Origin: Streptomyces buecherae
GTDB lineage: Bacteria > Actinomycetota > Actinomycetes > Streptomycetales > Streptomycetaceae
Assembly (NCBI RefSeq): GCF_014295035.1
Contig: NZ_CP060404.1
Coordinates: forward strand, 972,001 to 1,036,000
Direction: 5' to 3'
DNA length: 64,000 nucleotides
Below the pieces are notes generated by a model. It was given only the letters and a program-made list of their open reading frames with translations, made no database searches and was not told where the DNA came from. Below, piece by piece: positions 3,839 through 25,325 of the stretch. The number at the start of each line of letters is the position of its first letter. Position 1 is the stretch's first letter. A program made the translations under genes and the position numbers.

Positions 3839-4441
3839 TCAGCGGGACGCGGTGGCGGACCACTCCGGGGATCGGCCGAGCGATGTCAGGACGAGGTCGA
3901 GGGCCGATCCGTCCGGGCGGGCGGGCAGCGCCGGCCGGAAGAGGGCCCCGGGGCCGGTGCGCCCTTCGTCGTCCGGCACGCGCTGCGCGATGGCCCCCGC
4001 GGCCCGTACGGTCTCCTCGTCCAGATCGAGGGGCACTCCCAGCGCGCGGGCCACGTCCCAGCCGTGGACGACGTAGTCCAGGAAGTGGAAGCCGATGGCG
4101 AGGGACGCGGGGAAGCGTCGGGTGGCGCTGATCTCGGGCAGGAGGAACTCGGCGCTGAGCACGCCGGGGCGGGCGAAGGCGTGCAGCACCGTCTCGGCGG
4201 CGGCGCAGTACGTCGCCAGCGGGTCGTCACCGAGTTCGCTGGGCTGCCAGTCGGCCAGGTCGGTTCCGCCACCGGTGGCCGCGGCGGCGAACCCGTGGTG
4301 CTGGCCGGCCATGTGAGCCACCAGCTCGCGCAGCGTCCACTTAGCGCACGGGGTCGGCCGGTCCCAGTCGCGCGCGGACGCCTGGCCAAGCACGCGCACG
4401 GTCTCCAGGACAGCCGTCCGGTCGAGCTTGCGGATATCCAT
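3839..4441 (-). CDS. TIGR03083/TIGR03086-type (mycothiol-dependent isomerase N-terminal/DinB-like) protein
   Basis: A 200-residue protein beginning MDIRKLDRTAVLETVRVLGQ. The pattern PCAKWTLRELVAHMAGQH near residue 40, and FLDYVVHGWDVARALG near residue 140, are typical of the actinobacterial TIGR03083/TIGR03086 family. These four-helix-bundle proteins are related to mycothiol-dependent maleylpyruvate isomerase. The conserved histidines of AHMAGQH and VHGWD are probable metal ligands. The start at 4441 is preceded by AGGGGG with good spacing. An in-frame ATG further upstream (4480) would abut the operator at 4481-4500 and is less likely. The gene lies downstream of hpgT on the same strand but has its own operator. 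A thiol-transfer or detoxification role is inference only. Confidence 0.75.
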   Translation of the reverse strand: MDIRKLDRTAVLETVRVLGQASARDWDRPTPCAKWTLRELVAHMAGQHHGFAAAATGGGTDLADWQPSELGDDPLATYCAAAETVLHAFARPGVLSAEFLLPEISATRRFPASLAIGFHFLDYVVHGWDVARALGVPLDLDEETVRAAGAIAQRVPDDEGRTGPGALFRPALPARPDGSALDLVLTSLGRSPEWSATASR

Positions 4442-4480
4442 CCTGCCCCCTTGGTCGAGCGGTTGCCTCGTGGAAAACAT

Positions 4481-4500
4481 TAGCACGACCGTACGTTTAG
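4481..4500 (+). promoter_or_regulatory. TetR-type operator, site A
   Basis: Sequence TAGCACGACCGTACGTTTAG, the best copy of a motif repeated in this cluster (core GCACGAYCGTGC). It lies 40-59 bases upstream of the start at 4441 and just past the hpgT stop. It is therefore placed to control the DinB-like gene. Binding by the TetR proteins encoded at 6921-7565 and 22999-23649 is inferred. Confidence 0.7.
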
Positions 4501-4551
4501 TTATGAGTGGCCGAACGGCCCGACCGCCGCCGGCCGGGCCCCGGCGCCGCC

Positions 4552-5892
4552 TCACGCGTCCGCCGTCGCCACCTGCGCCTCGATGAACCGGGCGAGCCGT
4601 CCCACCCCCTCGACGATCTCCTCGCGGCTCAACGCGCTGCACGAAAGGCGTAGTTGGTGCTCGCCGCCGCCGTCGAGGAAGAAGTCGGCCATCGGCGTCC
4701 ACAACACGCCGAAGTGGCGCGCCGACCGCTCCAGCGCCTTCGCGTCCGCGACGAACGGCACGTCCACGACGAGGAAGAAGCCGCCCGCCGGCTCGTTCCA
4801 CCGGACGCCCAGCGCCCGCCGCCGCTCGGCCGGAAAGTGCCGCGCCAACTCTTCGAGAACCGTGGACAAGTTGGTGCGGTAGTGGGCGATGGAGGCGGCG
4901 TTGGCCTCTCGCAGCCGACAGCCCGACTCCACGAGCAACCCGCCGATGACCGCCTGGCTGACGGCCGAGGTGTTGACGGTGGTCATGCTCTTGATCTTGG
5001 ACAGCTCGTCGGCGAGCAGCGAACGCCGCCCCGCCGGGTCGATGACCTCCTGGTCGGCGACGACGTACCCGACCCGCGCGCCGGGCAGCGCGGTCTTGGC
5101 GAACGAGCCGAGGTGCAGCACCCGCCGCTGCCGGTCCAGGGCCTTGAGGGTGGGCCGGGCCGAGCCCGCGCGCACGAAGAAGCCGTACGGGTCGTCCTCC
5201 AGGATCAGCAGGTCCTCCTGGGCCGCCACCGCGAGGAGCCGGCCGCGGGCCTCGACGGTCATGCTCGCGCCCGACGGGTTGGCGAAGTCCGGCACGACGT
5301 ACAGGGCGCGCGGACGCCGGCCCGCCTCCCGGGTACGGCGCACGGCGGCCAGCACCTCGTCGGGGTCGGGGCCGTGCGCGCCCTCCGGGACGGGTTCGAC
5401 CGCGATGTCGAGCAGTCGGGCCGCGCCGGTGACGCCGACGTAGCAGGGCGAGCTGACGAGAAGGGTGTCGTCGGGCCGGGCGAACAGGGCCCGCAGGGTG
5501 ATGAGCATCGCCTCCTGACAGCCGGTCGTCACCACCACCGACTCCGGGCTCACGTGGATCCGCTCGTCGTTGGCCAGGGTGCGGGCGATCAGGTCGTGGA
5601 TCACGCCGTTGGTGCGCCCGTACTGGAAGAGTTGGGTGCGCACCCGCTCGGGCGACCAGCCAAGCTCGCCCTCCAGGTAGTCGGTGTAGGAGCGCAGGTA
5701 GTGCGGCAGGTCCGCGACCTCGAACGTCCCCTCGGCCGGTCGGCCGGGGGCGAAGGACAGCGCGTCGGGGAAGCGGGCGACGACCTCGTTCAGGAAGTTC
5801 ATCGCGTCGAGCAGCGGGTCGGTGAGCGAGGCGTGCAGGTCGCCAATGGCCAGCGGTTGTAAGGACGCCACGGGCGCGCTGGGTTCGGTCAC
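4552..5892 (-). CDS. hpgT: 4-hydroxyphenylglycine aminotransferase (HpgT)
   Basis: A 446-residue PLP fold-type I aminotransferase. The PLP lysine is K266 in GSFAKTALPGARVGY. FANPSG (N205) and EDDPYG (about 233-236) are the usual cofactor contacts. Segments such as SFAPGRP, QLFQYG, SSPCYVG and ELSKIKSM follow glycopeptide HpgT enzymes closely. HpgT converts 4-hydroxybenzoylformate to L-4-hydroxyphenylglycine, completing the pathway with HmaS (14510) and HmO (7742). The GTG start lies 3 bases after the stop of the esterase gene, so the two are co-transcribed behind the TetR gene. Codon 11 is TTA (5862-5860), making translation bldA-dependent in Streptomyces. Confidence 0.92.
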   Translation of the reverse strand: MTEPSAPVASLQPLAIGDLHASLTDPLLDAMNFLNEVVARFPDALSFAPGRPAEGTFEVADLPHYLRSYTDYLEGELGWSPERVRTQLFQYGRTNGVIHDLIARTLANDERIHVSPESVVVTTGCQEAMLITLRALFARPDDTLLVSSPCYVGVTGAARLLDIAVEPVPEGAHGPDPDEVLAAVRRTREAGRRPRALYVVPDFANPSGASMTVEARGRLLAVAAQEDLLILEDDPYGFFVRAGSARPTLKALDRQRRVLHLGSFAKTALPGARVGYVVADQEVIDPAGRRSLLADELSKIKSMTTVNTSAVSQAVIGGLLVESGCRLREANAASIAHYRTNLSTVLEELARHFPAERRRALGVRWNEPAGGFFLVVDVPFVADAKALERSARHFGVLWTPMADFFLDGGGEHQLRLSCSALSREEIVEGVGRLARFIEAQVATADA

Positions 5893-5895
5893 GGC

Positions 5896-6846
5896 TCAGT
5901 CCTTGGTCGCGGGGTCGGCGAGGGCGGTACGCAGGTACGCGGCCACCCTCGTGAGGGCGTGCCGGCCGGCGGGAACGGTGCCGGCCATGGCGAAGAAGCC
6001 GTGGGTGACGCCCGGGTAGCGGACGGCCTCGGCGCTCACCCCGCACTCCCGCAGCCGCGCGGCGTACCGCTCGCCCTCGTCGCGCAGCGGGTCGTACTCG
6101 GCGGTGATCACCAGCGCCGGGGGCAGGCCGGCGTGGTCGGTGGCGCGGAGCGGCGATGCCAGCGGGTGGTCCCCGTCCTCGGCGGCTGGCAGGTAGTTGT
6201 CCCAGTACCAGCGCACCGACTTGTCGTTGAAGAGCAGCGGGTCGGTGATCTCGCGGCGGGACGGGGTGTCGGCGCGGTGGTCGGTGTTGGGGTAGACGAG
6301 CACCTGGGCCCGCAGGTCGGGACCGCCGGCGTCGCGGGCCAGCAGGGTCACGGCGGCGGCCAGGTTGCCGCCCGCGCTGTCGCCGGCGACGGCCAGCCGA
6401 CCAGGGTCGCCACCGAAGCGCGGGGCGTGCTCGGCGGCCCAGCGCAGGCCGGCGAAGCAGTCGTGGGGCGCCGCCGGGAACGGGTGCTCGGGCGCGAGCC
6501 GGTAGCCGACGGCGACCGTGAGGCAGCCCGCCGCGTTGGCCAGGCTGCGGCAGATCGCGTCGCTGGTCTCCAAGGAGCCCAGCGTCCAGCCGCCGCCGTA
6601 GAAGTAGACGAGCACCGGTAACGGCCCCTCGCCCGCCGGGCGGTAGACGCGCACCGGCAGCGGGCCCGCCGGACCCGCCAGCGAGGCGTCGACGATCCGC
6701 TCGACCGGTTCGAGGTCGCCCGCCTCGGCCTGGATGGCGGCCAGGTCGGCCGCCCTGGCCTCGGCCAGCGTCATGGCGTACAGCGGGCGGACGTCCCGCG
6801 CGGCGCGCCGGTCGTACAGGGCCTGCGTGTGTGGCTCAAGGGGCAT
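5896..6846 (-). CDS. HSL-family alpha/beta hydrolase (esterase/lipase)
   Basis: A 316-residue hydrolase of the hormone-sensitive lipase family. The oxyanion-hole motif is YFYGGGW (HGGG-like, with Tyr for His), followed by YRLAPEHPFPAA, the nucleophile elbow GDSAGGN, an acidic residue near ITAEYDPLRDEG, and the catalytic His in GVTHGFF. The ATG at 6846 is chosen because the family N-terminus (MPLEPHTQALYD) begins there. The gene is the second of the operon TetR, esterase, hpgT. Codon 76 is TTA (6621-6619), a further bldA mark. It probably releases, deacylates or detoxifies a cluster product; the substrate cannot be read from sequence. Confidence 0.85.
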   Translation of the reverse strand: MPLEPHTQALYDRRAARDVRPLYAMTLAEARAADLAAIQAEAGDLEPVERIVDASLAGPAGPLPVRVYRPAGEGPLPVLVYFYGGGWTLGSLETSDAICRSLANAAGCLTVAVGYRLAPEHPFPAAPHDCFAGLRWAAEHAPRFGGDPGRLAVAGDSAGGNLAAAVTLLARDAGGPDLRAQVLVYPNTDHRADTPSRREITDPLLFNDKSVRWYWDNYLPAAEDGDHPLASPLRATDHAGLPPALVITAEYDPLRDEGERYAARLRECGVSAEAVRYPGVTHGFFAMAGTVPAGRHALTRVAAYLRTALADPATKD

Positions 6847-6920: not shown

Positions 6921-7565
6921 TCAGGGTGTGTCGGGGAGGAGCGTCGGGTCGGTGGCGACGCTGAGCAGGCGGTTGCGGATGCCGTTGGTCGCCCGTTGGT
7001 AGCAGGCGAAGTTGTGGTGCAGGACGGATTCGGCGTTGGCCGTCTCCAGCAGGGCGACGAGTTCGAAGGCGAGTTGGGGAATGTCGGTGTCCGTACGGAC
7101 CTCGCCGACCTCTCGGGCGTCGGCGATGACCCCCTCCAGCAGGGAGAACCAGTTGCCGTGCGCCGCGGTGACCGCGTCGCGCACCTTGCCCTCGCGCGCG
7201 TCGTACTCGGCCGAGACCGAGTAGAAGAAGCAGCCTCCGGGAAAGACGCGCTGTTCGGAGTAGGTGAGCCAGTTGACGCACAGGCGCCATATCTGGCCGA
7301 TGCCGGCGGGCAGATCGCGCGCCGGCCGCACCACGTGCTCGACGTAGATCTTGATCGCGGTGCGCACGGTGGCCAGTTGCAACTCCTCCTTCGAGCCGAA
7401 CAGGGCGAACACGCCGCTCTTGCTGAGCTGGAGCTCGCCGGCGAGCCGGCCGAGTGAGAGCCCCTCCAACCCTTCGACCGATGCGATGTTGACGGCTCGT
7501 TCGAGGACCAACCGCCGCGTCTGGTTGCCGCGTTCGATCCGTCCGTCCGGGTGCGTCGTCGTCAA
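6921..7565 (-). CDS. TetR-family transcriptional regulator (first of two paralogues)
   Basis: A 214-residue TetR/AcrR repressor. The N-terminal HTH spans roughly residues 15-60 (LGRLAGELQLSKSGVFALFG, then SKEEL). The ligand-binding half contains FPGGCFFYSVSAEYD, a segment typical of the YfiR/TetR_C subfamily. The start is TTG at 7565, supported by GAGGAGG six bases upstream. It heads an operon with the esterase and hpgT, 74 bases downstream, and diverges from hmO. Two operator copies lie in the shared promoter (7632-7651 and 7669-7688), so autoregulation is likely. It is strikingly similar throughout to the protein at 22999-23649. Confidence 0.9.
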   Translation of the reverse strand: MTTTHPDGRIERGNQTRRLVLERAVNIASVEGLEGLSLGRLAGELQLSKSGVFALFGSKEELQLATVRTAIKIYVEHVVRPARDLPAGIGQIWRLCVNWLTYSEQRVFPGGCFFYSVSAEYDAREGKVRDAVTAAHGNWFSLLEGVIADAREVGEVRTDTDIPQLAFELVALLETANAESVLHHNFACYQRATNGIRNRLLSVATDPTLLPDTP

Positions 7566-9081: not shown

Positions 9082-10518
9082 GTGGGGGAAGCTGATAGAT
9101 CGGCGTCCGAACTGCCTGTTGGTGGTGGCGGGGAATGGGTCGATGACGTACTGCTCGGGGGCAGTGGGCAGGACGTCGCCCTCCACCTCGGCGGCCCGGT
9201 CAGCCGAGCGGAGTTGCGCCGGCTGGTCGCCGACGAGCAGCGGCGGCTGCGCGCCGCCGGCCTGGCGGCGGGCGGTTCGCTGGCCGTCCGACTGCCGCCG
9301 TCGTTGAGCTGTGTCGTCACCATGCTGGCCGGGTGGCGCTCCGGTGCCCAAGTGGCCTTGCTCGACTACCGGTTGACGCGTCACGAGGTGGACGAGGCGC
9401 TCGCGCTGCTCACCCCGCAGGTGGTCGCGGAGCCGACCGACCCGGTCACCGGCACGCTGCGCGGGTACGTCGACGTCCGCTCGCGGATCGCCACGCCGGC
9501 CACCGGCCGCCCGGCCGCCACGCCGCACGCCCTCCTCCAGTTGAGCTCCGGCTCGACCGGCCCGTCCAAGGTCATCGGCCGCACGGTCGAGAGCCTGCTG
9601 ACCGAACTCGACCGGTACGCACGGCTCGACGGCTACCCGGCCCGGGGCGAGCGCACCGTGGTGCTGGCCTCGATCGTGCACGTCCTCGGGCTCGTCGGCG
9701 GGTTGCTGAGCGGGCTCGCGGCCGGGTCGCAGGTCGTCCTGCCCCGGACCCACACGCTCGACGGCATCGTGCGGGCCGTCGCCACGGGAGAGGAGCCGAC
9801 GACCCTGCTCGGCGTCCCCTCGCAGGCCGCGATGCTCGCCGCGGCCGGGGCACCGCCGAGACTGCCGCGGCTGCGCCGGATGATCGTGGGCGGCGAGCTG
9901 GTCAAACCCGGCGTGCGGGAGCGCTTCACCCGCGCGTACGGCGCCGAACTCGGCGTCATGTACGGCATGACCGAGGTGGGCGTCATCGCGACCGACGTGA
10001 GCGGCGCGCACACCCCCGGGCTCGTTCCGGTGCACGGCATGCGGGTGCGGATCGAGGACGGCCAGATCCTGCTGGGCCTGCCGGCCAGCCCGTACGTGGG
10101 CCGCACCGATCGGACCCGGTTCGTCGACGGCTGGCTGCGCACGAGGGACGCGGGCGGCATCGACCCGGCCAGCGGGCTGCTCACGGTGCACGGCCGGCTG
10201 GACGCGCAGGTCTCCGTCGGCGGCCTCAAGGTGGACCTCGCCGAGGTGGAGGCCACCCTCGCGGCGCTGCCCGGCGTCATCGACGCGGTGGTGGTGCAGG
10301 GGACGGGCATCGAGGGCTTCGTGACCGTGCGCGAGCCCGGCGCGTTCGCGGCCCTCGCCGACGCGCTCGCCGCGCGCCTGGCCCCGTACAAGAGGCCACG
10401 CACGCTGCACCTGCTGCCCGCGCTCCCGCGCACCGCGACGGGCAAGCCGGTGCGCGACGCGGAGGCGCTGCGCGCCGCGGTGCGCGCGGCGGCCTCGGTC
10501 GGGGCGGCTCAGGCGTAG
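9082..10518 (+). CDS. Adenylate-forming acyl/aryl ligase (AMP-dependent synthetase)
   Basis: A 478-residue ANL-superfamily ligase, short for the family. The P-loop is LQLSSGSTGPSKVIGRT near residue 155. YGMTEVG near residue 295 is the A5-like motif, GWLRTRDAG gives the ATP-binding aspartate region, and TATGKPVR near the C-terminus carries the catalytic lysine. The GTG start has AGGGGAGAG 6-7 bases upstream. The gene ends 10 bases into the convergent PPTase gene. It likely loads an acid (hydroxyphenylglycine, its keto acid or a fatty acid) on the ACP at 11178. The substrate is not readable from sequence with confidence. Confidence 0.85.
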   Translation: MGEADRSASELPVGGGGEWVDDVLLGGSGQDVALHLGGPVSRAELRRLVADEQRRLRAAGLAAGGSLAVRLPPSLSCVVTMLAGWRSGAQVALLDYRLTRHEVDEALALLTPQVVAEPTDPVTGTLRGYVDVRSRIATPATGRPAATPHALLQLSSGSTGPSKVIGRTVESLLTELDRYARLDGYPARGERTVVLASIVHVLGLVGGLLSGLAAGSQVVLPRTHTLDGIVRAVATGEEPTTLLGVPSQAAMLAAAGAPPRLPRLRRMIVGGELVKPGVRERFTRAYGAELGVMYGMTEVGVIATDVSGAHTPGLVPVHGMRVRIEDGQILLGLPASPYVGRTDRTRFVDGWLRTRDAGGIDPASGLLTVHGRLDAQVSVGGLKVDLAEVEATLAALPGVIDAVVVQGTGIEGFVTVREPGAFAALADALAARLAPYKRPRTLHLLPALPRTATGKPVRDAEALRAAVRAAASVGAAQA

Positions 10519-11159
10519 TCGGCCGCGTCGACCCGGCGTACCCGGGTCCGGACGGCACCGGCCCGCACCGCTCCCACCCACGCCAGCCCCAGGACGTAGC
10601 GCCCCTCCCCCACGATGACCGCCGACGAGGTCAGGTGCGCGGCCCCCAGCAGGGGGCGCGGCGTCAGCGACGCGGCGGGCGGCCACCGCTCGGGCAGCGG
10701 CACCGGTCGGCTCATGCCGCCGCGCCGCAGCCCCTGGCCCCTCGCCTTGCCCACCGACTCCTTCTGCGTCCACAACCACAAGAAGGCCACCGACCGTTGC
10801 CGTTCGGGCAGGCCCGCGACCCACTCCGCCTCGGCGGGGTGCAGCCAGGACCGGGCCAGCGCGTCGGCGCGCAGCTCGCGCACCACCTCCACGTCCACCC
10901 CCACCGGGGTCCGGTCGGTCAAGGCGACGGCCAGTGCCCCGCGCGCATGAGCAAGGCTGACCCGCGGCGCCTCGGCGACCCCGCCGATGACGGGGCGACC
11001 GCCGGGTTCGTGGTCCAACCGAAGCCCGGACACCGGGACTCGCAGCGTCCGCGCCGCGGCCCGGAGCAACAGGGTGTGCGCCGTGCGGCGCTCGTCCCCG
11101 TCCGTCGTGCACCACAGCACCGTCACCGTGTCCGGGGCCGGCCCCGGGTGCCCATCCAT
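10509..11159 (-). CDS. Sfp-type 4'-phosphopantetheinyl transferase
   Basis: A 216-residue PPTase. The magnesium-binding GVDVE is at about residues 87-91 (D89, E91) and the signature WLWTQKESVGKA at about 128-139, with K133/E134 and K138. It would convert apo-ACP (11178) to holo-ACP by adding phosphopantetheine to a serine. The proposed start at 11159 is only 18 bases from the divergent ACP start and lacks a clear ribosome-binding site, so a longer N-terminus or leaderless translation is possible. Its 3' end overlaps the convergent ligase gene by 10 bases. It is inverted relative to the genes around it. Confidence 0.88.
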   Translation of the reverse strand: MDGHPGPAPDTVTVLWCTTDGDERRTAHTLLLRAAARTLRVPVSGLRLDHEPGGRPVIGGVAEAPRVSLAHARGALAVALTDRTPVGVDVEVVRELRADALARSWLHPAEAEWVAGLPERQRSVAFLWLWTQKESVGKARGQGLRRGGMSRPVPLPERWPPAASLTPRPLLGAAHLTSSAVIVGEGRYVLGLAWVGAVRAGAVRTRVRRVDAADYA

Positions 11160-11177: not shown

Positions 11178-11441
11178 ATGTCCGCAGAGGTTGAGAAGTT
11201 CGTCATCGAGGCCCTCGACAACATGAACTACGACGTCACCGGCGTGACCGCCGAGACCCCGCTCGGCCCCTCCGGCCTGGACCTGGAGTCCCTCTCGGTG
11301 GCCGAGATCGCCATTCAGGTGGAGGACACCTACGGCGTGAAGTTCGACGAGGACGAGATGGAGTCCGTCGCCCTGCTGACCGTCGGCGGCCTGGTCAAGG
11401 AGATCGTCCAGCGGGCGTCGGCCGCGACCGCGACCAAGTGA
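11178..11441 (+). CDS. Discrete acyl carrier protein
   Basis: An 87-residue type II carrier protein. The phosphopantetheine serine is S38 in GLDLESLSVAEI, followed by an acidic helix (EDTYGVKFDEDEM) typical of ACPs. The ATG is preceded by GAGGGAG with 8-base spacing. It is the only carrier protein in the cluster, so both ligases and the ketosynthase presumably work on it. It is set between the divergent PPTase gene and a downstream ligase and probably starts a transcript running to hmaS. Confidence 0.93.
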   Translation: MSAEVEKFVIEALDNMNYDVTGVTAETPLGPSGLDLESLSVAEIAIQVEDTYGVKFDEDEMESVALLTVGGLVKEIVQRASAATATK

Positions 11442-11568: not shown

Positions 11569-13218
11569 ATGAATCCCCAGAACGAGCGCGCGGAACTCGC
11601 GGCCGACCAGCGGTTGGGTGTCGGCAACGTCCTGACCACCCTCGTCGAGCGCGGCACCGGCCTGGCCGCGCCGACCCTGACCTTCGACACCCCGGTGGAC
11701 GGCCACCCCGCCTGGCAGGCCCTGTCGCTGGCCCAGCTCGGGCAGCGGGTGGCGGCCCGGGCCGCGGCGCTGCACGCGCTGGGCGTACGCCCCCGGGACC
11801 CGGTCGCCGTGTGGGTGGGTGCCGCGGCCGACCAGGTGCTCAGCTATCTGGCGCTGGTACGGCTCGGCGCGATCCCCGCGCTCGTCAACGGCCGGCTGCC
11901 CGCCGAGCAGGCGGGCGAGTACATCGCGCGGCTGCGGGCCGTGGGGGTGATCGCCGACGGCCCGCACCGCGAGGCGCTGTCCCAGGTCGGCTGCGCGACG
12001 GAACACCTGGCGGACCCGGCCACGTTGGGCGCGGGCGAGGCCGCCGCGGCGCCCGCGCCCTACCGGCACCACGGCAGCGAGCCCGTGGTGATCACCCACT
12101 CCTCGGGTACCACCGGCCTGCCCAAGGCGGTGACCCACTCGCACCACAGCCTGTTCGCGGCCATCCGGCACCGCCTCTCGCTGCCCAAGGGCCAGGGCCT
12201 CGACCGCATGTTGGGCGTCCTGCCGTCGGCGCACGCGGCCACCGTCATCGCCGTCAACCTCGCGCTGACCAACCGCAGCCAACTCGCCCTGCTCTCCCAA
12301 CAGGACGGCGGCCCGGTCCTGGACGCCGTCGAGCGCTGGCAGCCGCACAGCGTCCTCGGCTTCGCCACCACCTGGTCGGAGCTGGCCGGCGCGGACCTGG
12401 CGGCCCGCGACCTGGACTCCGTACGCACCTGGTGGAACACCGGCGACTGCGCGCACGAGGCGCACATCCGCAAGTTGGTCGCCGCCGGCGCGCGGGAGGC
12501 CGTCACCAGTGCGGGCCGGGTGCGCCGGCCCGGGTCGTTCTTCGTGGACGGCCTGGGCTCGTCGGAGATGGGCCACTCCCAGTTCTTCATCACCCACACG
12601 CCCGACACCAGCCGCTACGGGCGCTGCATCGGCAAGCCGCACGCCTTCTCGGACGTGGCCGTCGTCGATGACGCGGGCCACAAGCTCGGCCCGGGCCGGG
12701 TGGGCCAGTTGGCGATCAACGCGCCGACGCTCTCGCTCGGCTACTGGAACGACTCGGTGACCACTTACCGCACCCGCCGCGACGGCTACTTCCTCACCGG
12801 TGACCTCGTCTTCCACGACGCGGACGGCTACTACTACCACGTCGACCGGGCCGTGGACGCGGTGGACCTGGGCGACGGCAACCGGCTCTACACGATGCTG
12901 TGCGAGGAGCGGGTCCTCGCGGGCTGCGCCGACGTGTGGGAGTGCACCGTGGTCGCGGTGCCCAGCCAGGGGCGGGTCATCACCTCGGTGCTGCTCGTGC
13001 TCGACCCGGGGGCCGACCAGGAGGCCGACCGGGCGCCCGAGGTGCTCGCCGCCCTCGAACCGCACGTCGCCGACACCGTCGAGCGGGTCGTGGTGGTGAG
13101 CCCGGAGCGCATCCCGCTCGGGGCGACCGGCAAGGTGCGCAAGTTCCTGCTGCGCCAGCGCTTCCTGGACGGCGAGTTGCTGGGCCGGGAGAGCGTCGCC
13201 GGGCAGGTGACCGCGTGA
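11569..13218 (+). CDS. Second adenylate-forming acyl ligase
   Basis: A 549-residue AMP-dependent synthetase of usual length. The P-loop is THSSGTTGLPKAVTHSH near residue 180. Later come GLGSSEMGHSQF near 326, DGYFLTGDLV near 404, and IPLGATGKVRK near the C-terminus with the catalytic lysine. It resembles acyl-CoA synthetases more than amino-acid adenylation domains, so a fatty acid or aryl acid is the likely substrate. The stop overlaps the ketosynthase GTG by 4 bases (GTGA), so the two are translationally coupled. Its ATG follows a GAGAAAG-GAAG purine tract. Confidence 0.85.
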   Translation: MNPQNERAELAADQRLGVGNVLTTLVERGTGLAAPTLTFDTPVDGHPAWQALSLAQLGQRVAARAAALHALGVRPRDPVAVWVGAAADQVLSYLALVRLGAIPALVNGRLPAEQAGEYIARLRAVGVIADGPHREALSQVGCATEHLADPATLGAGEAAAAPAPYRHHGSEPVVITHSSGTTGLPKAVTHSHHSLFAAIRHRLSLPKGQGLDRMLGVLPSAHAATVIAVNLALTNRSQLALLSQQDGGPVLDAVERWQPHSVLGFATTWSELAGADLAARDLDSVRTWWNTGDCAHEAHIRKLVAAGAREAVTSAGRVRRPGSFFVDGLGSSEMGHSQFFITHTPDTSRYGRCIGKPHAFSDVAVVDDAGHKLGPGRVGQLAINAPTLSLGYWNDSVTTYRTRRDGYFLTGDLVFHDADGYYYHVDRAVDAVDLGDGNRLYTMLCEERVLAGCADVWECTVVAVPSQGRVITSVLLVLDPGADQEADRAPEVLAALEPHVADTVERVVVVSPERIPLGATGKVRKFLLRQRFLDGELLGRESVAGQVTA

Positions 13219-16722: not shown

Positions 16723-16761
16723 ATGCGGAATCCGTCCCCCACTCCCGAGGCGCGCGCGTGA
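16723..16761 (+). CDS. Putative 12-residue leader peptide coupled to the hydrolase gene
   Basis: ATG-started reading frame encoding MRNPSPTPEARA. It has GAGGAGAGAG upstream, and its TGA overlaps the GTG of the next gene as GTGA. The ribosome-binding site of the tiny frame is better than anything directly before the hydrolase GTG, so translation of the hydrolase may depend on it. No homologue can be expected for so short a peptide; it may simply be a coupling device or chance. Confidence 0.4.
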   Translation: MRNPSPTPEARA

Positions 16762-17624
16762 GCCGCGCGGCGCCGCTCGTCGGCGCGGCCCTGAACGCGC
16801 TGGCGCGCCCGGCGCCCGAGCTGGCCGGGCGGGCGGCGTACGCGCTGTTCCGCCATCCGCTGCGGCGCGGCAAGGTGCTGCCGCGCGAGCGCGCCGTCCA
16901 CGAGCGGGCCGCCGTCGAGGAGTTGGTGGTGGCCGGCAAGCGGGTGCGGTGCTATCGCTGGGGAGACGGCGGCGCGCCCGTGCTGATGCTGCACGGGTGG
17001 CAGTCCCGGGCCTCGCGGTACGCCGGGTTCGTGCCGCGCCTTGAGGCGCTGGGGCTGACGGGGCTGTCCTTCGACGCGCCGGGCCACGGCGCGTCGGCGG
17101 GGCGCGACACGACCGTGCTGGAGTACCGGGAGATCATCGGCCAACTCCAGGAGCGGTACGGCAGGTTCCACGCGATCGTCGCCCACTCGCTCGGTGCCAC
17201 CAGCGCGTTCCTGGCGCTACGCGGCGGCGCGCGGGCCGAGCGGCTGGTGACGGTCGCGGCGGTGCGGGACTTCGACCACTTCCCCGACGCGTTCGCCCGG
17301 CTGCTCGGGCTGTCGCCGAGCCTGCGGCAGGACCTGCGCGAGCGGATCGAGCACCGACTGTTCGGGCACGTGGCCGACCCGTGGGCGCTGTTCGACGCGG
17401 TGCGGGCGGCCACGGAGATCGACGTGCCGGTGCGCCTGATCCACGACGCGGACGACGACCTGGTCCCCCTCGCGCAGGCGCACGCGCTGCGCGCGGCGTA
17501 CGGGGCGCGGGCGGAGTTGGTCGTCACCCGTGGCCTCGGCCATCGGAAGGTGCTGGGCGAGCCGGCCGTGATCGACAGCGCGCTGGAGTTCATCGGGCCG
17601 GCCGCCCGGCGGACCACCCTTTAA
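16758..17624 (+). CDS. Alpha/beta hydrolase, cluster paralogue 1
   Basis: A 288-residue alpha/beta hydrolase. YRWGDG at 66-71 is followed by HGWQSRASRYA (79-89), DAPGHG (106-111), the nucleophile S144 in AHSLGA, an acidic residue near D233 in HDADDD and H262 in GLGHRKVLG. The same landmarks occur at the same spacing in the proteins at 21260 and 23782, so the three arose by duplication. It could act as a discrete thioesterase, lactonase or esterase. The GTG start is fixed by coupling to the 12-residue frame upstream. No TetR operator lies before it, so it probably belongs to the ACP-to-dioxygenase transcript. Confidence 0.85.
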   Translation: MSRAAPLVGAALNALARPAPELAGRAAYALFRHPLRRGKVLPRERAVHERAAVEELVVAGKRVRCYRWGDGGAPVLMLHGWQSRASRYAGFVPRLEALGLTGLSFDAPGHGASAGRDTTVLEYREIIGQLQERYGRFHAIVAHSLGATSAFLALRGGARAERLVTVAAVRDFDHFPDAFARLLGLSPSLRQDLRERIEHRLFGHVADPWALFDAVRAATEIDVPVRLIHDADDDLVPLAQAHALRAAYGARAELVVTRGLGHRKVLGEPAVIDSALEFIGPAARRTTL

Positions 17625-21221: not shown

Positions 21222-21259
21222 GCATCTCGTTCACTGTGATCGCATCGGGAAGGCGTGCC

Positions 21260-22123
21260 ATGGACCATGCGACGCCCCGCGTCGAGGCGCCCCTCAGCGA
21301 CGAGGGACAGCGCCTGTTCGACCTCTTCCGCCGGCCCCAGGGGCGCAGCAGGCCGCGACCCGGCGAGCGCGCGGCCATGGAGGGCGCGCGGTGGGGCCGG
21401 CTGACCGTGGGCGACACCGCGGTGGCCACCTACCGGTGGGGCGACGGCGCACGCCCGGTGCTGTTGGTGCACGGCTGGGAGTCGCGCGCCTCGCGGTACG
21501 CCAAGGTCGTCACCCGCCTGCTCGAACTGGGTTACAGCCCGCTGGCCTTCGACGCACCGGGGCACGGTGAGTCCGACGGCGACAGTACGACGTTGATCGA
21601 GTACCGCGACGCCATCGGCCAACTCCACGAGGCACACGGCCCGTTCGAGGCCGTGGTCGCGCACTCCTTCGGCGTCACCGCCTCCTTCCTCGCCCTGCGC
21701 GACGGGGTGCGCGCGCGGCGGGTGGTGGCGATCAGCTCGGTGCCGGACTTCGGCTACGTGGTCGACGCGTTCTGCGCCCACACGGGGCTGACGCCGCGTC
21801 TGCGGGACGAGTTGCGGCACCGGATCGAGCGGGACCTGTACCCGGGCGAGGCCGACCTGTGGGCGCGCTTCTCGGTCCTGACCGGGGTCGCCGACCCGCG
21901 CCCACCGCTCCTGTTGGTGCACGACGAGGACGACGAGGCGGTCGGCCCCGAGCAGGCGCGGCGCATCGCGGCGGCGTACGGCGAGCGGGCGCGGACGCTC
22001 ACCACCCGCAGGTTCGGCCACCGGCGCATCCTCGGCTCGCCCCAACTCGTGGCGGCCGTCGGCGACTTCGTGAGCACGGGCGCCGTCAGCGGCGGGCTTC
22101 CGGGCGCGGAGGCGGCGCGGTGA
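21260..22123 (+). CDS. Alpha/beta hydrolase, cluster paralogue 2
   Basis: A 287-residue hydrolase with YRWGDG, HGWESRASRYA, DAPGHGES, nucleophile Ser136 in AHSFGV, an acidic HDEDDE segment and FGHRRILG with the catalytic histidine. Spacing matches the other two cluster copies residue for residue through the elbow. ATG at 21260 is preferred over GTG at 21236 because GGGAAGG lies six bases upstream and the GTG nearly touches operator E. The stop overlaps the reductase GTG (GTGA), so the pair is coupled. Function is inferred as thioesterase/esterase. Confidence 0.85.
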   Translation: MDHATPRVEAPLSDEGQRLFDLFRRPQGRSRPRPGERAAMEGARWGRLTVGDTAVATYRWGDGARPVLLVHGWESRASRYAKVVTRLLELGYSPLAFDAPGHGESDGDSTTLIEYRDAIGQLHEAHGPFEAVVAHSFGVTASFLALRDGVRARRVVAISSVPDFGYVVDAFCAHTGLTPRLRDELRHRIERDLYPGEADLWARFSVLTGVADPRPPLLLVHDEDDEAVGPEQARRIAAAYGERARTLTTRRFGHRRILGSPQLVAAVGDFVSTGAVSGGLPGAEAAR

Positions 22124-22899
22124 GCGGCCTGCTCGCGGGCAAGCGCGTCCTGGTGACCGGCGTCCTGCTTGAGTCCTCGATCGCCTTCCACACCGCCCGG
22201 CTGTGCCAGGAACAGGGCGCCGACGTGGTGCTCACCGGCCACGGGCGGCTCAGCCTGGTCGAGCGGATCGCCCGCCGGCTCCCCGAGCCCGCTCCGCTGA
22301 TCGAACTCGACGTCCAGAACCAGGCCCACCTGGACGGCCTCGCGGACCGGGTACGGGAGTCGGCGACCGGCGACGCACGCCTGGACGGCGTGGTGCACTC
22401 GATCGCCTTCGCGCCGCCCGACGCGCTCGGTGGCGACTTCCTCGCCACCCCGTGGAGTTCGGTGGCCACCGCGGTCGAGGTGTCCGCGTACTCGCTCAAG
22501 GCCCTGGCCATGGCCACACTGCCGCTGATGCGGGAGCGCGGCGGGGCGATCGTGGGGCTGGACTTCGACGCGCGGACGGCGTGGCCCGCGTACGACTGGA
22601 TGGGCGTGGCCAAGGCCGCGCTCGAGTCGACCTCGCGCTACCTCGCCCGCGACCTCGGCCCGCACGGCATCCGCTGCAACCTGGTGGCGGCCGGGCCGAT
22701 CAAGACGATGGCGGCCCGGTCCATTCCGGGGTTCGAGACGTTCCGCGAGGTGTGGCGCACGCGCGCGCCGCTCGACTGGGACCTGTCCGACCCCGAACCG
22801 ACCGCCCGCGCGGTCGTCGCGCTGCTCTCGGACTGGTTCCCCCGCACGACGGGCGAGATCGTGCACGTGGACGGCGGGGTGCACGCCATCGGAGCGTAG
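22120..22899 (+). CDS. InhA/FabI-type enoyl-ACP reductase
   Basis: A 259-residue member of the InhA/FabI branch of the SDR superfamily. It has the atypical nucleotide motif GVLLESSIAFHTA, LDGVVHSIAFAP, GLDFDARTAWPAYDWMGVAK with Y158 and K165 (the same numbers as in mycobacterial InhA), and NLVAAGPIKTMA. It reduces trans-2-enoyl-ACP with NADH. Placed with a hydrolase under operator E, it could reduce the pathway's acyl chain. It could equally be a drug-insensitive duplicate protecting the host FAS. The GTG start overlaps the hydrolase stop. Confidence 0.9.
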   Translation: MSGLLAGKRVLVTGVLLESSIAFHTARLCQEQGADVVLTGHGRLSLVERIARRLPEPAPLIELDVQNQAHLDGLADRVRESATGDARLDGVVHSIAFAPPDALGGDFLATPWSSVATAVEVSAYSLKALAMATLPLMRERGGAIVGLDFDARTAWPAYDWMGVAKAALESTSRYLARDLGPHGIRCNLVAAGPIKTMAARSIPGFETFREVWRTRAPLDWDLSDPEPTARAVVALLSDWFPRTTGEIVHVDGGVHAIGA

Positions 22900-22998: not shown

Positions 22999-23649
22999 CT
23001 ACGGCGCCTCGGGGAGCAGCGCGGGGTCGGTGACCACCGCGCGCAGGCGGCTGGCGATCGCCTTGGCCGCCATGTCGTAGTACGTGGACTCGTCGTGCAG
23101 GACCGACTCCGCGTTGGCCATCTCCAGGAGCGCCACGATCTCGAAGACGAGCTGCGGGACGTCGGCGTCGGCCGCGATCTCACCGGCCTGTTGGGCCTCG
23201 CGCACGGTCTGTTCGAGATAGGCGAACCAGTTGGTGCGGGCGGCGGCGAGGGTGTCGTGGACCTTGCCCTCGCGGGCGCCGTACTCGGCGGATACCGAGT
23301 AGAAGAAGCAGCCGCCGGGGAAGACCCGCTCCCGGGAGTAGGTGAGCCATCCGGTGCACACCCGCCACAGCCGGTCCACGCCGGGCGGCAGGTCGCGGGC
23401 CGGCTGGACGACGTGCTCCAGGTAGACCTTGATGGCCGCCCGCACGGTGGCCAGTTGCAGGTCCTCCTTGGAGCCGAACAGGGCGAACACGCCGCTCTTG
23501 CTCAGCTTGAGTTCGCTCGCGAGGCGGCCCAGCGAGAGCCCTTCGAGGCCCTCGACGGAGGCGATCTCCACCGTGCGCTTCAGAATCGTCTGACGGGTCT
23601 GGTTCCCGCGCGCGATCCGCCCGTCGGTATGTGTCGCCGTCGCTGCCAT
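22999..23649 (-). CDS. TetR-family transcriptional regulator (second paralogue)
   Basis: A 216-residue TetR protein very similar to the one at 6921-7565. Shared blocks include EGLEGLSLGRLA, LSKSGVFALFGSKE, FPGGCFFYSVSAEY and ALLEMANAESVLH (ALLETANAESVLH in the first). The recognition helices are nearly identical, so both should bind the same DNA motif, while ligand-pocket residues differ more. ATG start at 23649. Operator F lies about 92 bases upstream, consistent with autoregulation or cross-regulation. Confidence 0.9.
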   Translation of the reverse strand: MAATATHTDGRIARGNQTRQTILKRTVEIASVEGLEGLSLGRLASELKLSKSGVFALFGSKEDLQLATVRAAIKVYLEHVVQPARDLPPGVDRLWRVCTGWLTYSRERVFPGGCFFYSVSAEYGAREGKVHDTLAAARTNWFAYLEQTVREAQQAGEIAADADVPQLVFEIVALLEMANAESVLHDESTYYDMAAKAIASRLRAVVTDPALLPEAP

Positions 23650-23740
23650 GCCCGCGTCTACCTACTTTCCGGTGCCGGACCCTCGTGGTCACCAGAGCCG
23701 CGCACGTGCTGGTGGGGGGACCGCCCAGTGTAGCCAATGT

Positions 23741-23760: not shown

Positions 23761-23781
23761 CGTCACACGGGCCCGCGCCCC

Positions 23782-24675
23782 TCAGTCCGCGGACGCCGTC
23801 CGCGCCCGCGCCGTGCCGATCGCGCTCGGGCCGTGCTCGACGAAGTCCAGCACCGTGCGCACCACGTCGGCGTCGCCCAGGATGCGCCGGTGCCCGAGGT
23901 CCCGCGTGATGATCAACTGGGCCCGCTCGCCGAACGCCGCGGCGATCCGGCGCCCCTGGGAGACGTCGATCCGCGTGTCGCCCTCGTCGTGGACCACCAG
24001 CAGCGGCGCGTGCACGGAGCCGACCGCGTGCGTCACCGAGAAGGGCGTCCGCTCGCTCGGCACGTCGGGGAAGAGCCGCCGGTCGACCTGGTGGCGCAAC
24101 CGCTCCGTGAGCTGGTCGCGGAGCCGGAGTTCGGAGCTGAACTCCTCGATGAGGAAGTCGAAGTCGCACACCCCGCTGACGGTCACGATCCGCTCGGCGC
24201 GCACGCCGTGGTGCAGCGCGTAGAACGAGCCCAACACACCCAGCGAGTGGGCCACCAGGCCCTCGAACGTGCCGTACCGGTCGTGCAGGGCGGTGACGAT
24301 GGCGCGGTAGTCGAGGATGGTGGTGCTGCGACCGGTCGCGTCGCCGTGGCCGGGCGCGTCGAAGGTGATGACGCTGTAGCCCCGCTCCAGGAGCCCGGGG
24401 ACGAACTCGGACAGCCGCGACCCGCGCGACTGCCAGCCGTGCACCAACAGCACCGGCCGGGTCCCGTCGCCCCACCGGTAGGTCACCGCGCGCCCGCTGT
24501 CGACCGCCAGGTGTTCCACCGTCGCCGTCGCGAACAGCTCGCGCTCGAGGCCCCGCAGCTTGCTCCGCGCGAACGGCATGTGGAAAAGGCGGAACGCACC
24601 GGCACCCGCCAGCCGCCCGGAGACCCGGGAGACGACGTTGAGGGTGGTGCTCGCGACTGCCTCGATGGGCTGCAT
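23782..24675 (-). CDS. Alpha/beta hydrolase, cluster paralogue 3
   Basis: A 297-residue hydrolase with YRWGDG at 66-71, HGWQSRGSR, DAPGHG, nucleophile S144 in AHSLGV, an acidic HDEGDT segment and LGHRRILG. It aligns without gaps to paralogue 1 from about residue 60 to the nucleophile elbow. ATG at 24675. It is transcribed divergently from the small protein gene at 24819, with operator G between them, and lies upstream of the second TetR gene on the same strand. Its substrate is unknown. Three copies suggest distinct release or editing steps. Confidence 0.85.
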   Translation of the reverse strand: MQPIEAVASTTLNVVSRVSGRLAGAGAFRLFHMPFARSKLRGLERELFATATVEHLAVDSGRAVTYRWGDGTRPVLLVHGWQSRGSRLSEFVPGLLERGYSVITFDAPGHGDATGRSTTILDYRAIVTALHDRYGTFEGLVAHSLGVLGSFYALHHGVRAERIVTVSGVCDFDFLIEEFSSELRLRDQLTERLRHQVDRRLFPDVPSERTPFSVTHAVGSVHAPLLVVHDEGDTRIDVSQGRRIAAAFGERAQLIITRDLGHRRILGDADVVRTVLDFVEHGPSAIGTARARTASAD

Positions 24676-24713
24676 CCCGCTACTCCTCGATCGACGCCTG
24701 GAGCCTGCTACGT

Positions 24714-24733
24714 TAGCACGACCGTCCGTGCAG
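24714..24733 (+). promoter_or_regulatory. TetR-type operator, site G
   Basis: TAGCACGACCGTCCGTGCAG carries the common left half TAGCACGACCGT. It lies in the divergent promoter between the third hydrolase (start 24675) and the gene starting at 24819. Confidence 0.68.
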
Positions 24734-24818
24734 TTTTATGCCCGAGCGCCCACCCGGCGTCCGCTCGGGCGAGGGGCCGCCCAGCGGCTCAGCAGCCGAG
24801 AAGGCCAAGGAGGCCGCC

Positions 24819-25325
24819 GTGTCGAGCACCATCTGGTTCGCGCCGTGGAAGCCCGGCCCGGCCGACCTCCCCCGGTCGGCGGGGGCGGGGGGCGGCCCGG
24901 TCCTCGTGAGCGTGACCGAGTTCACCGCCCACCGACCGTGGACCGCGCCCGGCGTGGCCCTGGCGGGGCTGGCCCTGCGCCGGTCCTGGGACGGGTTGGA
25001 GGGCGCGGTGGGCCTGTGGCTGTGGGCGGCCTCCGACGTGGCGCGCCCCCGCTCGGGCTCGGTCTCCGTCTGGCGCGACGCGCGGGCCCTGAACGGTTTC
25101 GTGGCCCGCCACGACCACGTACGGATCATGCGCGCGTACCGGGACCGGGGCACCCTGCGCTCGACCAGTTGGCGGGCCACCACCTTCGAGCACGACGCCA
25201 CCCTGCGGGCCGCCCGCTCCCTGCTCACCGGGGAGTCGCCCTGGCCCACCCAGGAAGCGACGACCGACCCCGGGGCCGCGGGGCCGACCCACCCGGGCCA
25301 GTGCTCCGGCCGGGCCGACGCCTGA
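24819..25325 (+). CDS. Small protein of the DUF3291/spheroidene-monooxygenase-like type
   Basis: A 168-residue protein. SVTEFTAHRPWTAPGVALAG, WLWAASDVARPRSGSVSVW and FVARHDHVRIMRAYRDRGTLRSTSW suggest a ferredoxin-like alpha/beta barrel as in DUF3291 or CrtA-like proteins. I recognise the fold pattern only weakly. GTG at 24819 is chosen because AAGGAGG lies five bases upstream. The earlier ATG at 24738 would leave only four bases after operator G. It is the last gene with the shared operator and is followed by a strong hairpin, marking the right edge of the cluster. Confidence 0.6.
   Translation: MSSTIWFAPWKPGPADLPRSAGAGGGPVLVSVTEFTAHRPWTAPGVALAGLALRRSWDGLEGAVGLWLWAASDVARPRSGSVSVWRDARALNGFVARHDHVRIMRAYRDRGTLRSTSWRATTFEHDATLRAARSLLTGESPWPTQEATTDPGAAGPTHPGQCSGRADA

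What the first reader, a model, noticed from the sequence alone, without database searches (positions are those of the whole stretch)
3839..25325. Unrecognised cluster combining a complete hydroxyphenylglycine pathway with stand-alone type II FAS-like enzymes and no NRPS
HmaS, HmO and HpgT are all present, which normally serve NRPS products (glycopeptides, ramoplanin, CDA, nocardicin). Here there is no NRPS or modular PKS. Instead there is one discrete ACP, its own PPTase, two adenylate-forming ligases, a FabF-type ketosynthase, an InhA-type reductase, a desaturase, a PhyH dioxygenase, four hydrolases and an exporter. The ligase, ketosynthase and hmaS genes are joined by 4-base overlaps. The inference is a small aryl-acyl product made on a free ACP from hydroxyphenylglycine or its keto acid plus a fatty chain. 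I know no described product with this gene set.
Basis: partly seen in the sequence, partly recalled or inferred. Interest (0 to 1): 0.88.

Follow-up and report, generated by a model that had tools for sequence, protein, structure and literature searches.

The report
Hydroxyphenylglycine diazo cluster without an NRPS
This bacterial gene cluster, with close copies in Streptomyces and Kitasatospora, sets genes predicted to make the amino acid 4-hydroxyphenylglycine beside a carrier protein, a predicted chain-extending enzyme and a close relative of enzymes that use nitrite to build nitrogen-nitrogen bonds, so it likely makes a small reactive diazo-type compound that the searched literature does not describe.

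Summary
In detail: from 3839 to 25325 lie 4-hydroxyphenylglycine (Hpg) pathway homologues, a discrete ACP, a PPTase, two ANL enzymes, a FabF-type KS, PhyH and FabI/InhA; the nearest NRPS condensation domain is about 230 kb away. It is no chance grouping: Lig1, ACP, Lig2, KS, HmaS and PhyH occur together in 25 of 26 distinct loci chosen by Lig2 or KS. Relatives carry nitrous-acid genes in the cluster (CreE 8 of 25, CreD 6 of 25 loci). Lig1, ACP and Lig2 match the ligase, an ACP and the diazotase of avenalumic acid (ava) clusters in order (42%, 34%, 43%), but 3,4-AHBA starter genes are absent and the Hpg genes stand in their place. Best reading: an ava-like diazotization cluster re-fed with Hpg, likely making an Hpg-derived diazo (or N-N derived) small molecule. 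Not shown: product, amine attacked, enzyme order. The window's copy lacks TyrA, CreE and CreD, so nitrite would come in trans from two ANS pairs elsewhere in its genome.

The parts
3839..4441 (-). MDMPI/TIGR03086-type (mycothiol-dependent family) protein; conserved left member
   Evidence: Pfam 41.4 bits, TIGR03086 146.7 bits over cutoff 83; 65-72% in 6 relatives, L025-L029 and G023
4552..5892 (-). HpgT-type aminotransferase (predicted 4-hydroxyphenylglycine transaminase)
   Evidence: Aminotran_1_2 87.6 bits; of the 20 best-scoring HpgT loci fetched, 3 are of this family and 13 of the other 17 have an HmO-type gene (>=49%) within 1.5 kb; in 16 of 25 core loci
5896..6846 (-). ABH3 alpha/beta hydrolase, candidate releasing enzyme
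   Evidence: Abhydrolase_3 267 bits; in 18 of 25 core loci
6921..7565 (-). TetR regulator 1
   Evidence: TetR_C_13 105.7 bits
7742..8818 (+). HmO-type FMN-dependent 4-hydroxymandelate oxidase (predicted)
   Evidence: FMN_dh 424.8 bits; in 20 of 25 core loci
9082..10518 (+). Lig1: aryl-acid ligase of the AvaA1 type, predicted loader of the ACP (start codon uncertain)
   Evidence: AMP-binding 112 bits; 40-42% to the ligase of ava-type loci L123-L125; Val, not Asp, at the amino-acid anchor position in 11 of 11 orthologues
10509..11126 (-). PPTase
   Evidence: ACPS PF01648 55.4 bits; in 13 of 25 core loci
11178..11441 (+). discrete acyl carrier protein
   Evidence: PP-binding 20.2 bits, just under the 20.8 cutoff; AcpM-like; attachment Ser kept in 14 of 14 family ACPs aligned, as ESL; 34-39% to an ava-type ACP
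11569..13218 (+). Lig2: CreM/AvaA6-family ANL enzyme, predicted ATP-dependent nitrite-activating diazotase
   Evidence: NF058622 (AvaA6) 470 bits, cutoff 975, next family 160; PDB 8ztz 369, Tri17 9bq0/8tf7 285, 9xb8 250, then ligases at 116 or less; motif GD.(A/V)H..HI(R/K)
13215..14513 (+). FabF-type ketosynthase
   Evidence: Pfam; Cys-His-His active site kept in 11 of 11 orthologues
14510..15574 (+). HmaS-type 4-hydroxymandelate synthase (predicted; also passes the HPPD model)
   Evidence: best PDB match 2r5v 330 bits, ahead of entries labelled HPPD at 308, 273 and 261; TIGR01263 376 bits over cutoff 277; metal-ligand motifs kept in 11 of 11
15665..16582 (+). PhyH Fe/2-oxoglutarate oxygenase, predicted to act on Hpg or a precursor
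   Evidence: PhyH 80 bits; HxD kept in 11 of 11; also beside Hpg genes at L101, L102, L106 and L090, where no Lig2 was found
16758..17624 (+). alpha/beta hydrolase a
   Evidence: not found in L026 and L028
17626..19212 (+). MFS exporter (start may lie nearer 17860)
   Evidence: MFS_1 154.6 bits
19256..20227 (+). acyl-ACP desaturase family protein (accessory)
   Evidence: FA_desaturase_2 220 bits; 83-89% in 5 relatives
21236..22123 (+). alpha/beta hydrolase b
   Evidence: 61-67% in 4 relatives
22120..22899 (+). FabI/InhA-type enoyl reductase, second copy in the genome; candidate self-protection
   Evidence: NF005908 427 bits over cutoff 299; other copy 68% identical at G000:C1:7068955; 82-85% in 4 relatives
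22999..23649 (-). TetR regulator 2
23782..24675 (-). alpha/beta hydrolase c
   Evidence: 64-69% in 4 relatives
24738..25325 (+). conserved unknown protein, right edge of the shared block
   Evidence: no Pfam family; 56-64% in L025, L026, L028, not found in G023

Best explanation
Window 3839-25325 is one copy of a conserved actinobacterial gene cluster that sets predicted 4-hydroxyphenylglycine (Hpg) genes beside a carrier protein, an AvaA1-like ligase, a predicted ketosynthase and a close relative of nitrite-using diazotases, and it likely makes a small Hpg-derived compound whose amine would be converted to a diazo (N-N) group. Proposed order, all inferred: HmaS, HmO and HpgT make Hpg from 4-hydroxyphenylpyruvate and PhyH modifies it or a precursor; Lig1 loads the aryl acid on the ACP activated by the cluster's PPTase; the ketosynthase adds one malonyl unit; the ABH3 hydrolase releases the chain; Lig2 adenylates nitrous acid and nitrosates the Hpg-derived amine, giving an alpha-diazo ketone/acid (an aryl analogue of 4-diazo-3-oxobutanoic acid) or a product of its cyclisation or N2 loss; the MFS protein exports it. 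In several relatives nitrous acid would come from in-cluster CreE/CreD; in this strain it would come in trans.
For: Lig2: AvaA6 model NF058622 470 bits versus about 160 for the next family; best solved relatives 8ztz, Tri17 (9bq0/8tf7, so named in PMC11705231) and 9xb8 at 250-369 bits against 116 or less for ordinary ligases. Ten homologues were scanned: seven (40-47% identical to Lig2) pass the AvaA6 cutoff at 1031-1115 bits, three do not (L023 413, L024 366 and the Lig2 orthologue L013 435); two further hits, L018 and L022, were not scanned. Motif GD.(A/V)H..HI(R/K) in 11 of 11 Lig2, 7 of 7 AvaA6 equivalogs, L023, Tri17, 8ztz and 9xb8; absent from L024 and 3 of 3 plain ligases. Nitrous-acid genes in the cluster of relatives: CreE-type gene in 8 of 25 core loci, CreD in 6 of 25; CreD of L025 and L119 passes the nitrosuccinate-lyase cutoff 650 at 691 and 727. 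CreD-level hits (>=475 bits): 9 of 11 cluster genomes versus 34 of 147 others (Fisher p 1.5e-4); leaving out those with CreD in the cluster, 4 of 6 versus 34 of 147 (p 0.03). The own genome holds two CreD equivalogs, 749 and 737 bits, each beside a CreE homologue. Synteny with ava-type L123: Lig1 42%, ACP 34%, Lig2 43%, CreE 54%, CreD 61%; subtypes also share the KS and CLF-position genes in the same order. 3,4-AHBA synthase genes were found in none of the loci compared nor in the own genome (AvaI homologue), leaving Hpg as the only amine the cluster itself is predicted to make.
Against: Lig2 is far below the AvaA6 equivalog cutoff (470 of 975), so its substrate differs; the CreM-family diazotizations in the passages of PMC11705231 that I read are of aryl amines (hydrazones and others for Tri17), none of an alpha-amino acid. 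CreE/CreD are not in the window; two cluster genomes (G154, G156) lack a CreD-level hit, and G155's is partial. The CreE-type genes have no curated-model hit; they are named from NAD_binding_9 and identity to the gene beside CreD in L123. HmaS also passes the HPPD model. Lig1 lacks the Asp that anchors an alpha-amine in NRPS A domains, so it may load a deaminated or already modified acid. HpgT and HmO were both missing from the 20-kb stretches L113, L115 and L117. G079 has a 3,4-AHBA-synthase-like gene (56%, partial) about 20 kb from its cluster, and G215 one elsewhere. The window copy lacks TyrA, the 324-aa protein and ACP2 that relatives keep, so it may be incomplete. The tree does not resolve where Lig2 branches.
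Confidence: 0.52

Rival explanations
1. Nitrite chemistry without a retained diazo: Lig2 nitrosates the Hpg-derived amine, but N2 is lost (deamination, lactone or tetronate formation) or the product is an N-nitroso/diazeniumdiolate or a pyrazole.
For: Same Lig2 and ANS evidence. In ava and cma the diazo group is made only to be removed (PMC10777205). PhyH and other oxygenase-like genes could prepare an N-OH.
Against: No homologue of the denitrifying reductase AvaA7 in the loci compared.
Confidence: 0.22
2. One reading: a plain aryl-acyl or aryl-lipid product on a free ACP, Lig2 being an ordinary acyl ligase.
For: Lig2 has the AMP-binding fold; desaturase and FabI point to fatty chains; CreE/CreD are missing in the window and in most of the 25 loci as far as read.
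Against: Lig2 scores 470 with the AvaA6 diazotase model against 160 for acyl-CoA ligases; CreE/CreD stand in the cluster of relatives; desaturase and FabI are not part of the shared core.
Confidence: 0.14
3. The diazotized amine is aromatic, installed on the ring by an unrecognised enzyme or supplied in trans.
For: The CreM-family diazotizations read about in PMC11705231 act on aryl amines; G079 and G215 hold a 3,4-AHBA-synthase-like gene outside the cluster.
Against: No 3,4-AHBA synthase genes in the loci compared; no AvaI homologue in 10 of the 11 first cluster genomes, the window's own among them; HpgT would give an alpha-amine.
Confidence: 0.08
4. In this particular strain the cluster is a decaying remnant that no longer makes the family product (not exclusive with the best explanation for the family).
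For: TyrA, CreE, CreD, the 324-aa protein with ACP2, the ferredoxin and the patatin-like gene are missing; 276-3838 shows no codon bias.
Against: The retained frames are open, core catalytic motifs are intact and coding bias is normal; two ANS pairs exist elsewhere.
Confidence: 0.2

Closest known systems
ava (avenalumic acid) and cma (p-coumaric acid) diazotization clusters
   Same: AvaA1-like ligase, ACP, AvaA6-like diazotase in one order; in relatives also the KS and CLF-position genes, CreE/CreD and an MFS gene; 72 of 134 ava-type clusters also lack in-cluster ANS genes (PMC10777205).
   Different: No 3,4-AHBA synthase (AvaH/I) and no AvaA7; Hpg genes and PhyH instead; an additional FabF-type KS; the window has no CLF.
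cre (cremeomycin) and tri (triacsin): CreM, Tri17
   Same: ANL enzyme that uses ATP and nitrite from the ANS pathway.
   Different: CreM acts on an aryl amine, Tri17 on a hydrazone; no Hpg pathway with this ACP-KS set in the passages read.
alazopeptin (AzpL)
   Same: nitrite-dependent diazotization for an aliphatic diazo product (PMC10777205, PMC11705231).
   Different: AzpL is a membrane protein presumed ATP-independent, not an ANL enzyme.
dob (4-diazo-3-oxobutanoic acid, Nocardia; PMC13061610)
   Same: Amino-acid-derived acyl on a carrier protein plus one malonyl extension giving a gamma-diazo-beta-keto acid is the product type proposed here.
   Different: dob makes the diazo by hydrazone oxidation with a type I PKS; here a discrete KS and direct nitrite use are predicted.
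Hpg units of NRPS clusters (glycopeptides, CDA)
   Same: HmaS, HmO, HpgT.
   Different: No condensation domain within about 225 kb; PhyH and Lig2 added.

Membership tests
CreM/AvaA6 ATP-dependent nitrite-activating ANL enzymes (for Lig2) | closest sequence relatives are nitrite-using ANL enzymes rather than acyl ligases | tested here: met
   of the solved relatives only Tri17 is named as nitrite-using in a paper I saw, 8ztz and 9xb8 are not
CreM/AvaA6 ATP-dependent nitrite-activating ANL enzymes (for Lig2) | AvaA6 equivalog cutoff (975 bits) | tested here: not met
   470 bits: same wider family, different substrate group
CreM/AvaA6 ATP-dependent nitrite-activating ANL enzymes (for Lig2) | shared GD.(A/V)H..HI(R/K) motif (found here, not a published signature) | tested here: met
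   11 of 11 orthologues; 0 of 3 plain ligases; homologue L024 also lacks it
CreM/AvaA6 ATP-dependent nitrite-activating ANL enzymes (for Lig2) | diazotization activity with ATP and nitrite | not testable with these tools
   needs enzyme assay
ava-type cluster | 3,4-AHBA synthase genes | tested here: not met
   no AvaH/AvaI homologue in the loci compared, no AvaI homologue in the own genome
ava-type cluster | KS-CLF pair (AvaA4/AvaA5) | tested here: not met
   absent from the window; present in subtypes such as L032, L109, L110
ava-type cluster | denitrifying reductase AvaA7 | tested here: not met
   no homologue; the L123 query is AvaA7 by NF058621, 513 bits over cutoff 400
ANS nitrous-acid pathway | CreE and CreD in the same cluster | tested here: not met
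   not in the window; CreE-type gene in 8 and CreD in 6 of 25 core loci; two pairs elsewhere in the own genome
Hpg biosynthesis | HmaS, HmO and HpgT homologues together | tested here: met
   HmaS also passes the HPPD model; activity not testable
Hpg NRPS cluster | NRPS condensation domain in the neighbourhood | tested here: not met
   nearest about 230 kb to the left
dob-type diazo cluster | type I PKS and hydrazine-forming enzymes | tested here: not met
   none seen among the cluster's Pfam hits; no dedicated search with dob proteins

The most novel reading that the evidence does not exclude
A widespread, undescribed class of clusters in which a CreM-family enzyme diazotizes the aliphatic alpha-amine of an Hpg-derived beta-ketoacyl chain: nitrite-dependent biosynthesis of aryl alpha-diazo ketones or acids (or the 4-hydroxypyrazoles or tetronates they collapse to) without any NRPS.
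Probability: 0.38. Interest if true: 0.87.

Novelty: new variant of a known kind. Interest (0 to 1): 0.73.

Why it matters
Fewer than 30 diazo natural products are reported, and of 469 predicted or known diazo clusters only 20 are linked to products (PMC13061610, passages). The 134 ava-type clusters of PMC10777205 were found by requiring 3,4-AHBA genes, so a search of that kind would miss this family. If right, it gives a conserved set of clusters with a defined starter amine (Hpg) and a soluble enzyme to test for direct diazotization of an aliphatic amine; the review PMC11705231 lists aliphatic diazo compounds as not yet accessible (passage). It would also give Hpg a role outside peptides. 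The ketosynthase marker is found in 69 of 394 genomes of the window's family, and 14 of the 15 new loci fetched from those hits hold the six-gene core, so the chemistry may be common.

Tried and rejected
Considered and rejected: (1) NRPS just outside the window: no condensation domain within about 225 kb. (2) HmaS as ordinary HPPD: nearer to 2r5v than to entries labelled HPPD and in one cluster with PhyH, KS and Lig2 in 25 of 25 core loci; but it passes the HPPD model, so this is not closed. (3) PhyH as a polyketide tailoring enzyme: it sits with Hpg genes at loci without Lig2. (4) Lig1 as an Hpg-specific NRPS-type A domain: Val at the anchor position, AvaA1-like. (5) A loose CreD count: at E<=1e-60, 101 of 150 genus genomes match because of PcaB-like lyases, so I set a bit threshold of 475 after seeing the list; the p-values are therefore post hoc and take no account of relatedness.

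Rows dropped: L033 (Budvicia, 33% over 89 residues) of the 9 loci; L120, the L025 record again, of the 16 stretches.

Led nowhere: AlphaFold of the 324-aa protein of relatives gave mean pLDDT 46 and was not used; it had no PDB match at E<=1. The Lig2 tree with plain-ligase outgroups is unresolved and full of long branches. Rfam and tRNA scans of the window were empty. Literature searches found no such cluster (open-access library only).


Full report
Where it lies. The window is positions 972001-1036000 of an 8.4-Mb single-contig genome. A codon-bias gene caller on the window plus 40 kb to the left and Pfam scans give the gene list in 'parts'. Position 276-3838 shows no codon bias. The closest NRPS condensation domain lies about 230 kb to the left.

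It is a conserved unit. A Lig2 query against one genome per species returned nine loci, eight of them close (L025-L032; L033, a weak partial match, was dropped). A genus sample of 150 genomes added G023 (83%) and G079 (63%) besides the window's own copy. In S. flavidovirens (L025), S. parvulus (L026), S. sp. WAC 04229 (L028) and G023 the order from the MDMPI gene to the right edge is kept, with exceptions: hydrolase a is not found in L026 and L028, TetR1 and the 24738 gene not in G023, and L025 has about 8 kb extra after the desaturase. A KS query in 394 genomes of the family gave 100 matches in 69 genomes (at most 4 candidates scored per genome); I fetched 16 of the 100. One (L120) is the L025 record again and one (L121) has only KS and ACP. 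Lig1, ACP, Lig2, KS, HmaS and PhyH are present together in 25 of the 26 distinct loci (11 chosen by Lig2, 15 by KS; thresholds 38% identity over 55% of length). In the 25, HmO is found in 20, ABH3 in 18, HpgT in 16, PPTase in 13, TyrA in 12, the MFS gene in 10; stretches of 20 kb cut some of these off. L113, L115 and L117 show neither HpgT nor HmO.

What the relatives add. Between PhyH and the hydrolase/exporter genes, L025-L028 and L030 carry a prephenate dehydrogenase, a flavoprotein of the CreE type (NAD_binding_9) and a lyase. The L025 lyase passes the curated nitrosuccinate-lyase cutoff (690.7, cutoff 650). G023 and L029 keep the dehydrogenase but not CreE/CreD. In the wider set the CreE-type gene is found in 8 of 25 and CreD in 6 of 25 loci, including L119 with CreD at 727 bits; L107 and L108 have the CreE-type gene without CreD in the stretch read. 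The CreE-type genes hit no NCBIfam model; the name rests on NAD_binding_9 and on 54% identity to the gene beside CreD in the ava-type locus L123. CreE and CreD make nitrous acid from aspartate (PMC10777205; part 1 of 4 of the text and passages read).

What Lig2 is. Its best curated model is the AvaA6 diazotase NF058622 (470 bits, cutoff 975; next best 160). Its best solved relatives are 8ztz, 9bq0/8tf7 and 9xb8 (250-369 bits), then a drop to 116 and below. The review PMC11705231 (passages read) names 9BQ0/8TF7 as Tri17, the nitrite-using N-nitrosylase of triacsin; what 8ztz and 9xb8 do I did not see. Of ten homologues scanned, seven (40-47% identical to Lig2) exceed the AvaA6 cutoff (1031-1115 bits) and three do not (L023, L024 and the orthologue L013). 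A motif GD.(A/V)H..HI(R/K) is in all 11 Lig2 orthologues, all 7 AvaA6 equivalogs, L023 and the three solved relatives, and in none of three plain ligases; L024 lacks it. The tree with these outgroups is unresolved and is not used as evidence.

The ava parallel. Three AvaA6-equivalog loci were fetched (L123-L125). L123 is an ava-type cluster by curated models: AvaA6 1062 bits, AvaA7 513 over 400, CreD 666 over 650, a 3-dehydroquinate synthase II-family gene and a DhnA-type aldolase gene related to 3,4-AHBA synthesis genes. Its ligase is 42% identical to Lig1, one ACP 34% to the window's ACP, its diazotase 43% to Lig2, the CreE-type gene 54% and CreD 61% to the L025 genes, and its KS and CLF-position genes 46% and 40% to genes standing between ACP2 and Lig2 in L032. 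So subtypes of this family keep the ava order ligase, ACP, ACP, KS, CLF, diazotase; three of them (L108, L109, L114) also have an AvaB-like gene. The window's subtype has no such KS-CLF pair and has the extra FabF-type KS. The 3,4-AHBA genes were found in none of the loci compared. An AvaI homologue is absent from the window's genome; of the 11 cluster genomes only G079 has one (56% over part of its length, about 20 kb from the cluster), and G215 of the wider set has one elsewhere (AvaH was not searched in whole genomes). The Hpg genes occupy that role.

Hpg unit. HmaS has the metal motifs and its best PDB match is 2r5v, ahead of entries labelled HPPD (308, 273 and 261 bits); that 2r5v is the A. 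orientalis hydroxymandelate synthase is recalled. It also passes the HPPD model TIGR01263 (376, cutoff 277), and no control with known HmaS was run on that model. Among the 20 best-scoring HpgT loci fetched from the longer list, 3 belong to this family and 13 of the other 17 have an HmO-type gene within 1.5 kb. PhyH stands beside Hpg genes at loci without a Lig2 orthologue: L101 and L102 (in L101 with two ATP-grasp ligases and a luciferase-like monooxygenase), L106 (with a larger KS-like gene further off, 30% to this KS) and L090 (only 1.5 kb either side read). So PhyH most likely acts on Hpg or a precursor.

Nitrous acid supply in this strain. CreE/CreD are not in the window. Counting hits of at least 475 bits (to exclude PcaB-like lyases at about 350-430), 9 of 11 cluster-bearing genomes have CreD (G155 partial) against 34 of 147 other genus genomes (p 1.5e-4). 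Leaving out those with CreD in the cluster, 4 of 6 against 34 of 147 (p 0.03). The threshold was set after seeing the list, and the genomes are related. G154 and G156 have none. The own genome carries two CreD equivalogs (749 and 737 bits), each beside a CreE homologue in other gene neighbourhoods. PMC10777205 reports that 72 of 134 ava-type clusters also lack in-cluster ANS genes.

Mechanism proposed. Shown: gene content, conservation, intact catalytic motifs, family placement of Lig2, ANS genes in relatives. Inferred: Hpg is the starter; Lig1 loads it or a modified form; KS adds malonyl; ABH3 releases; Lig2 diazotizes. Lig1 has Val where alpha-amino-acid A domains have the anchoring Asp, and the ava-type ligases have Ser; the anchor role of that Asp is recalled knowledge. 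This fits an aryl-acid ligase and leaves open that the amine is masked or already changed when loaded. A gamma-diazo-beta-keto acid would be the aryl analogue of the dob product (PMC13061610; outline, sections 7 and 8 and passages read); such compounds can close to 4-hydroxypyrazoles (recalled chemistry). FabI as a second copy and the mycothiol-type MDMPI protein may be self-protection; this is speculation.

Novelty. Eight full-text searches listed no paper that I recognised as joining Hpg genes with a diazotase or ANS genes; I judged from titles, abstract starts and term counts. The library holds open-access papers only, and no MIBiG comparison was possible. Filed as a new variant of a known kind: an ava-like diazotization cluster with a new starter pathway, failing the ava membership tests (AHBA genes, AvaA7, KS-CLF in the window).

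Noticed in passing
276-3838: About 3.5 kb without codon bias or recognisable genes; in six relatives this side carries a 324-aa protein with EXXH-type motifs by eye (no Pfam family) and an 86-aa ACP-like protein. The 324-aa protein has only a weak 27% match elsewhere in the own genome.
   Followed up: partly
22120-22899: FabI/InhA is a second copy (68% to a copy beside a FabG-like gene at genome 7.07 Mb) and is kept in four relatives: candidate resistant target.
   Followed up: partly
20272-20649 (-): Imm51 immunity-type gene lies where relatives have a ferredoxin and a patatin-like gene (the latter below the Pfam cutoff).
   Followed up: no
L078 (genome 2.660-2.680 Mb) and L079 (6.392-6.412 Mb): Two CreE/CreD pairs of the own genome in other neighbourhoods: one beside a polyprenyl synthetase and an amine oxidase, one beside a chorismate-binding/GATase fusion, an AMP ligase and an FAD monooxygenase. 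Possible further N-N clusters.
   Followed up: partly
L101:124-11047, L102, L106:6688-13321: Compact Hpg units with HmaS, PhyH, TyrA, HpgT and HmO but no Lig2; L101 with two ATP-grasp ligases and a luciferase-like monooxygenase, L106 with an EamA exporter. Possibly another orphan Hpg-derived metabolite family.
   Followed up: partly
L032, L116, L122: One subtype carries pyruvate-dehydrogenase-like E1 alpha/beta genes, then a flavohemoprotein (NO-inducible type) and a fused AccD/AccA gene, 87-93% conserved.
   Followed up: partly
L113, L115, L117: Another subtype carries E1 alpha/beta genes; in L115 also a stand-alone condensation-domain protein, a KAS III-like protein, a methyltransferase, a macrolide-type glycosyltransferase and an ABC exporter. 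No HpgT or HmO in the 20 kb read.
   Followed up: partly
genomes of genus g14: Some genomes hold several copies of the KS marker, at least four in G334 (only 4 candidates were scored per genome).
   Followed up: partly
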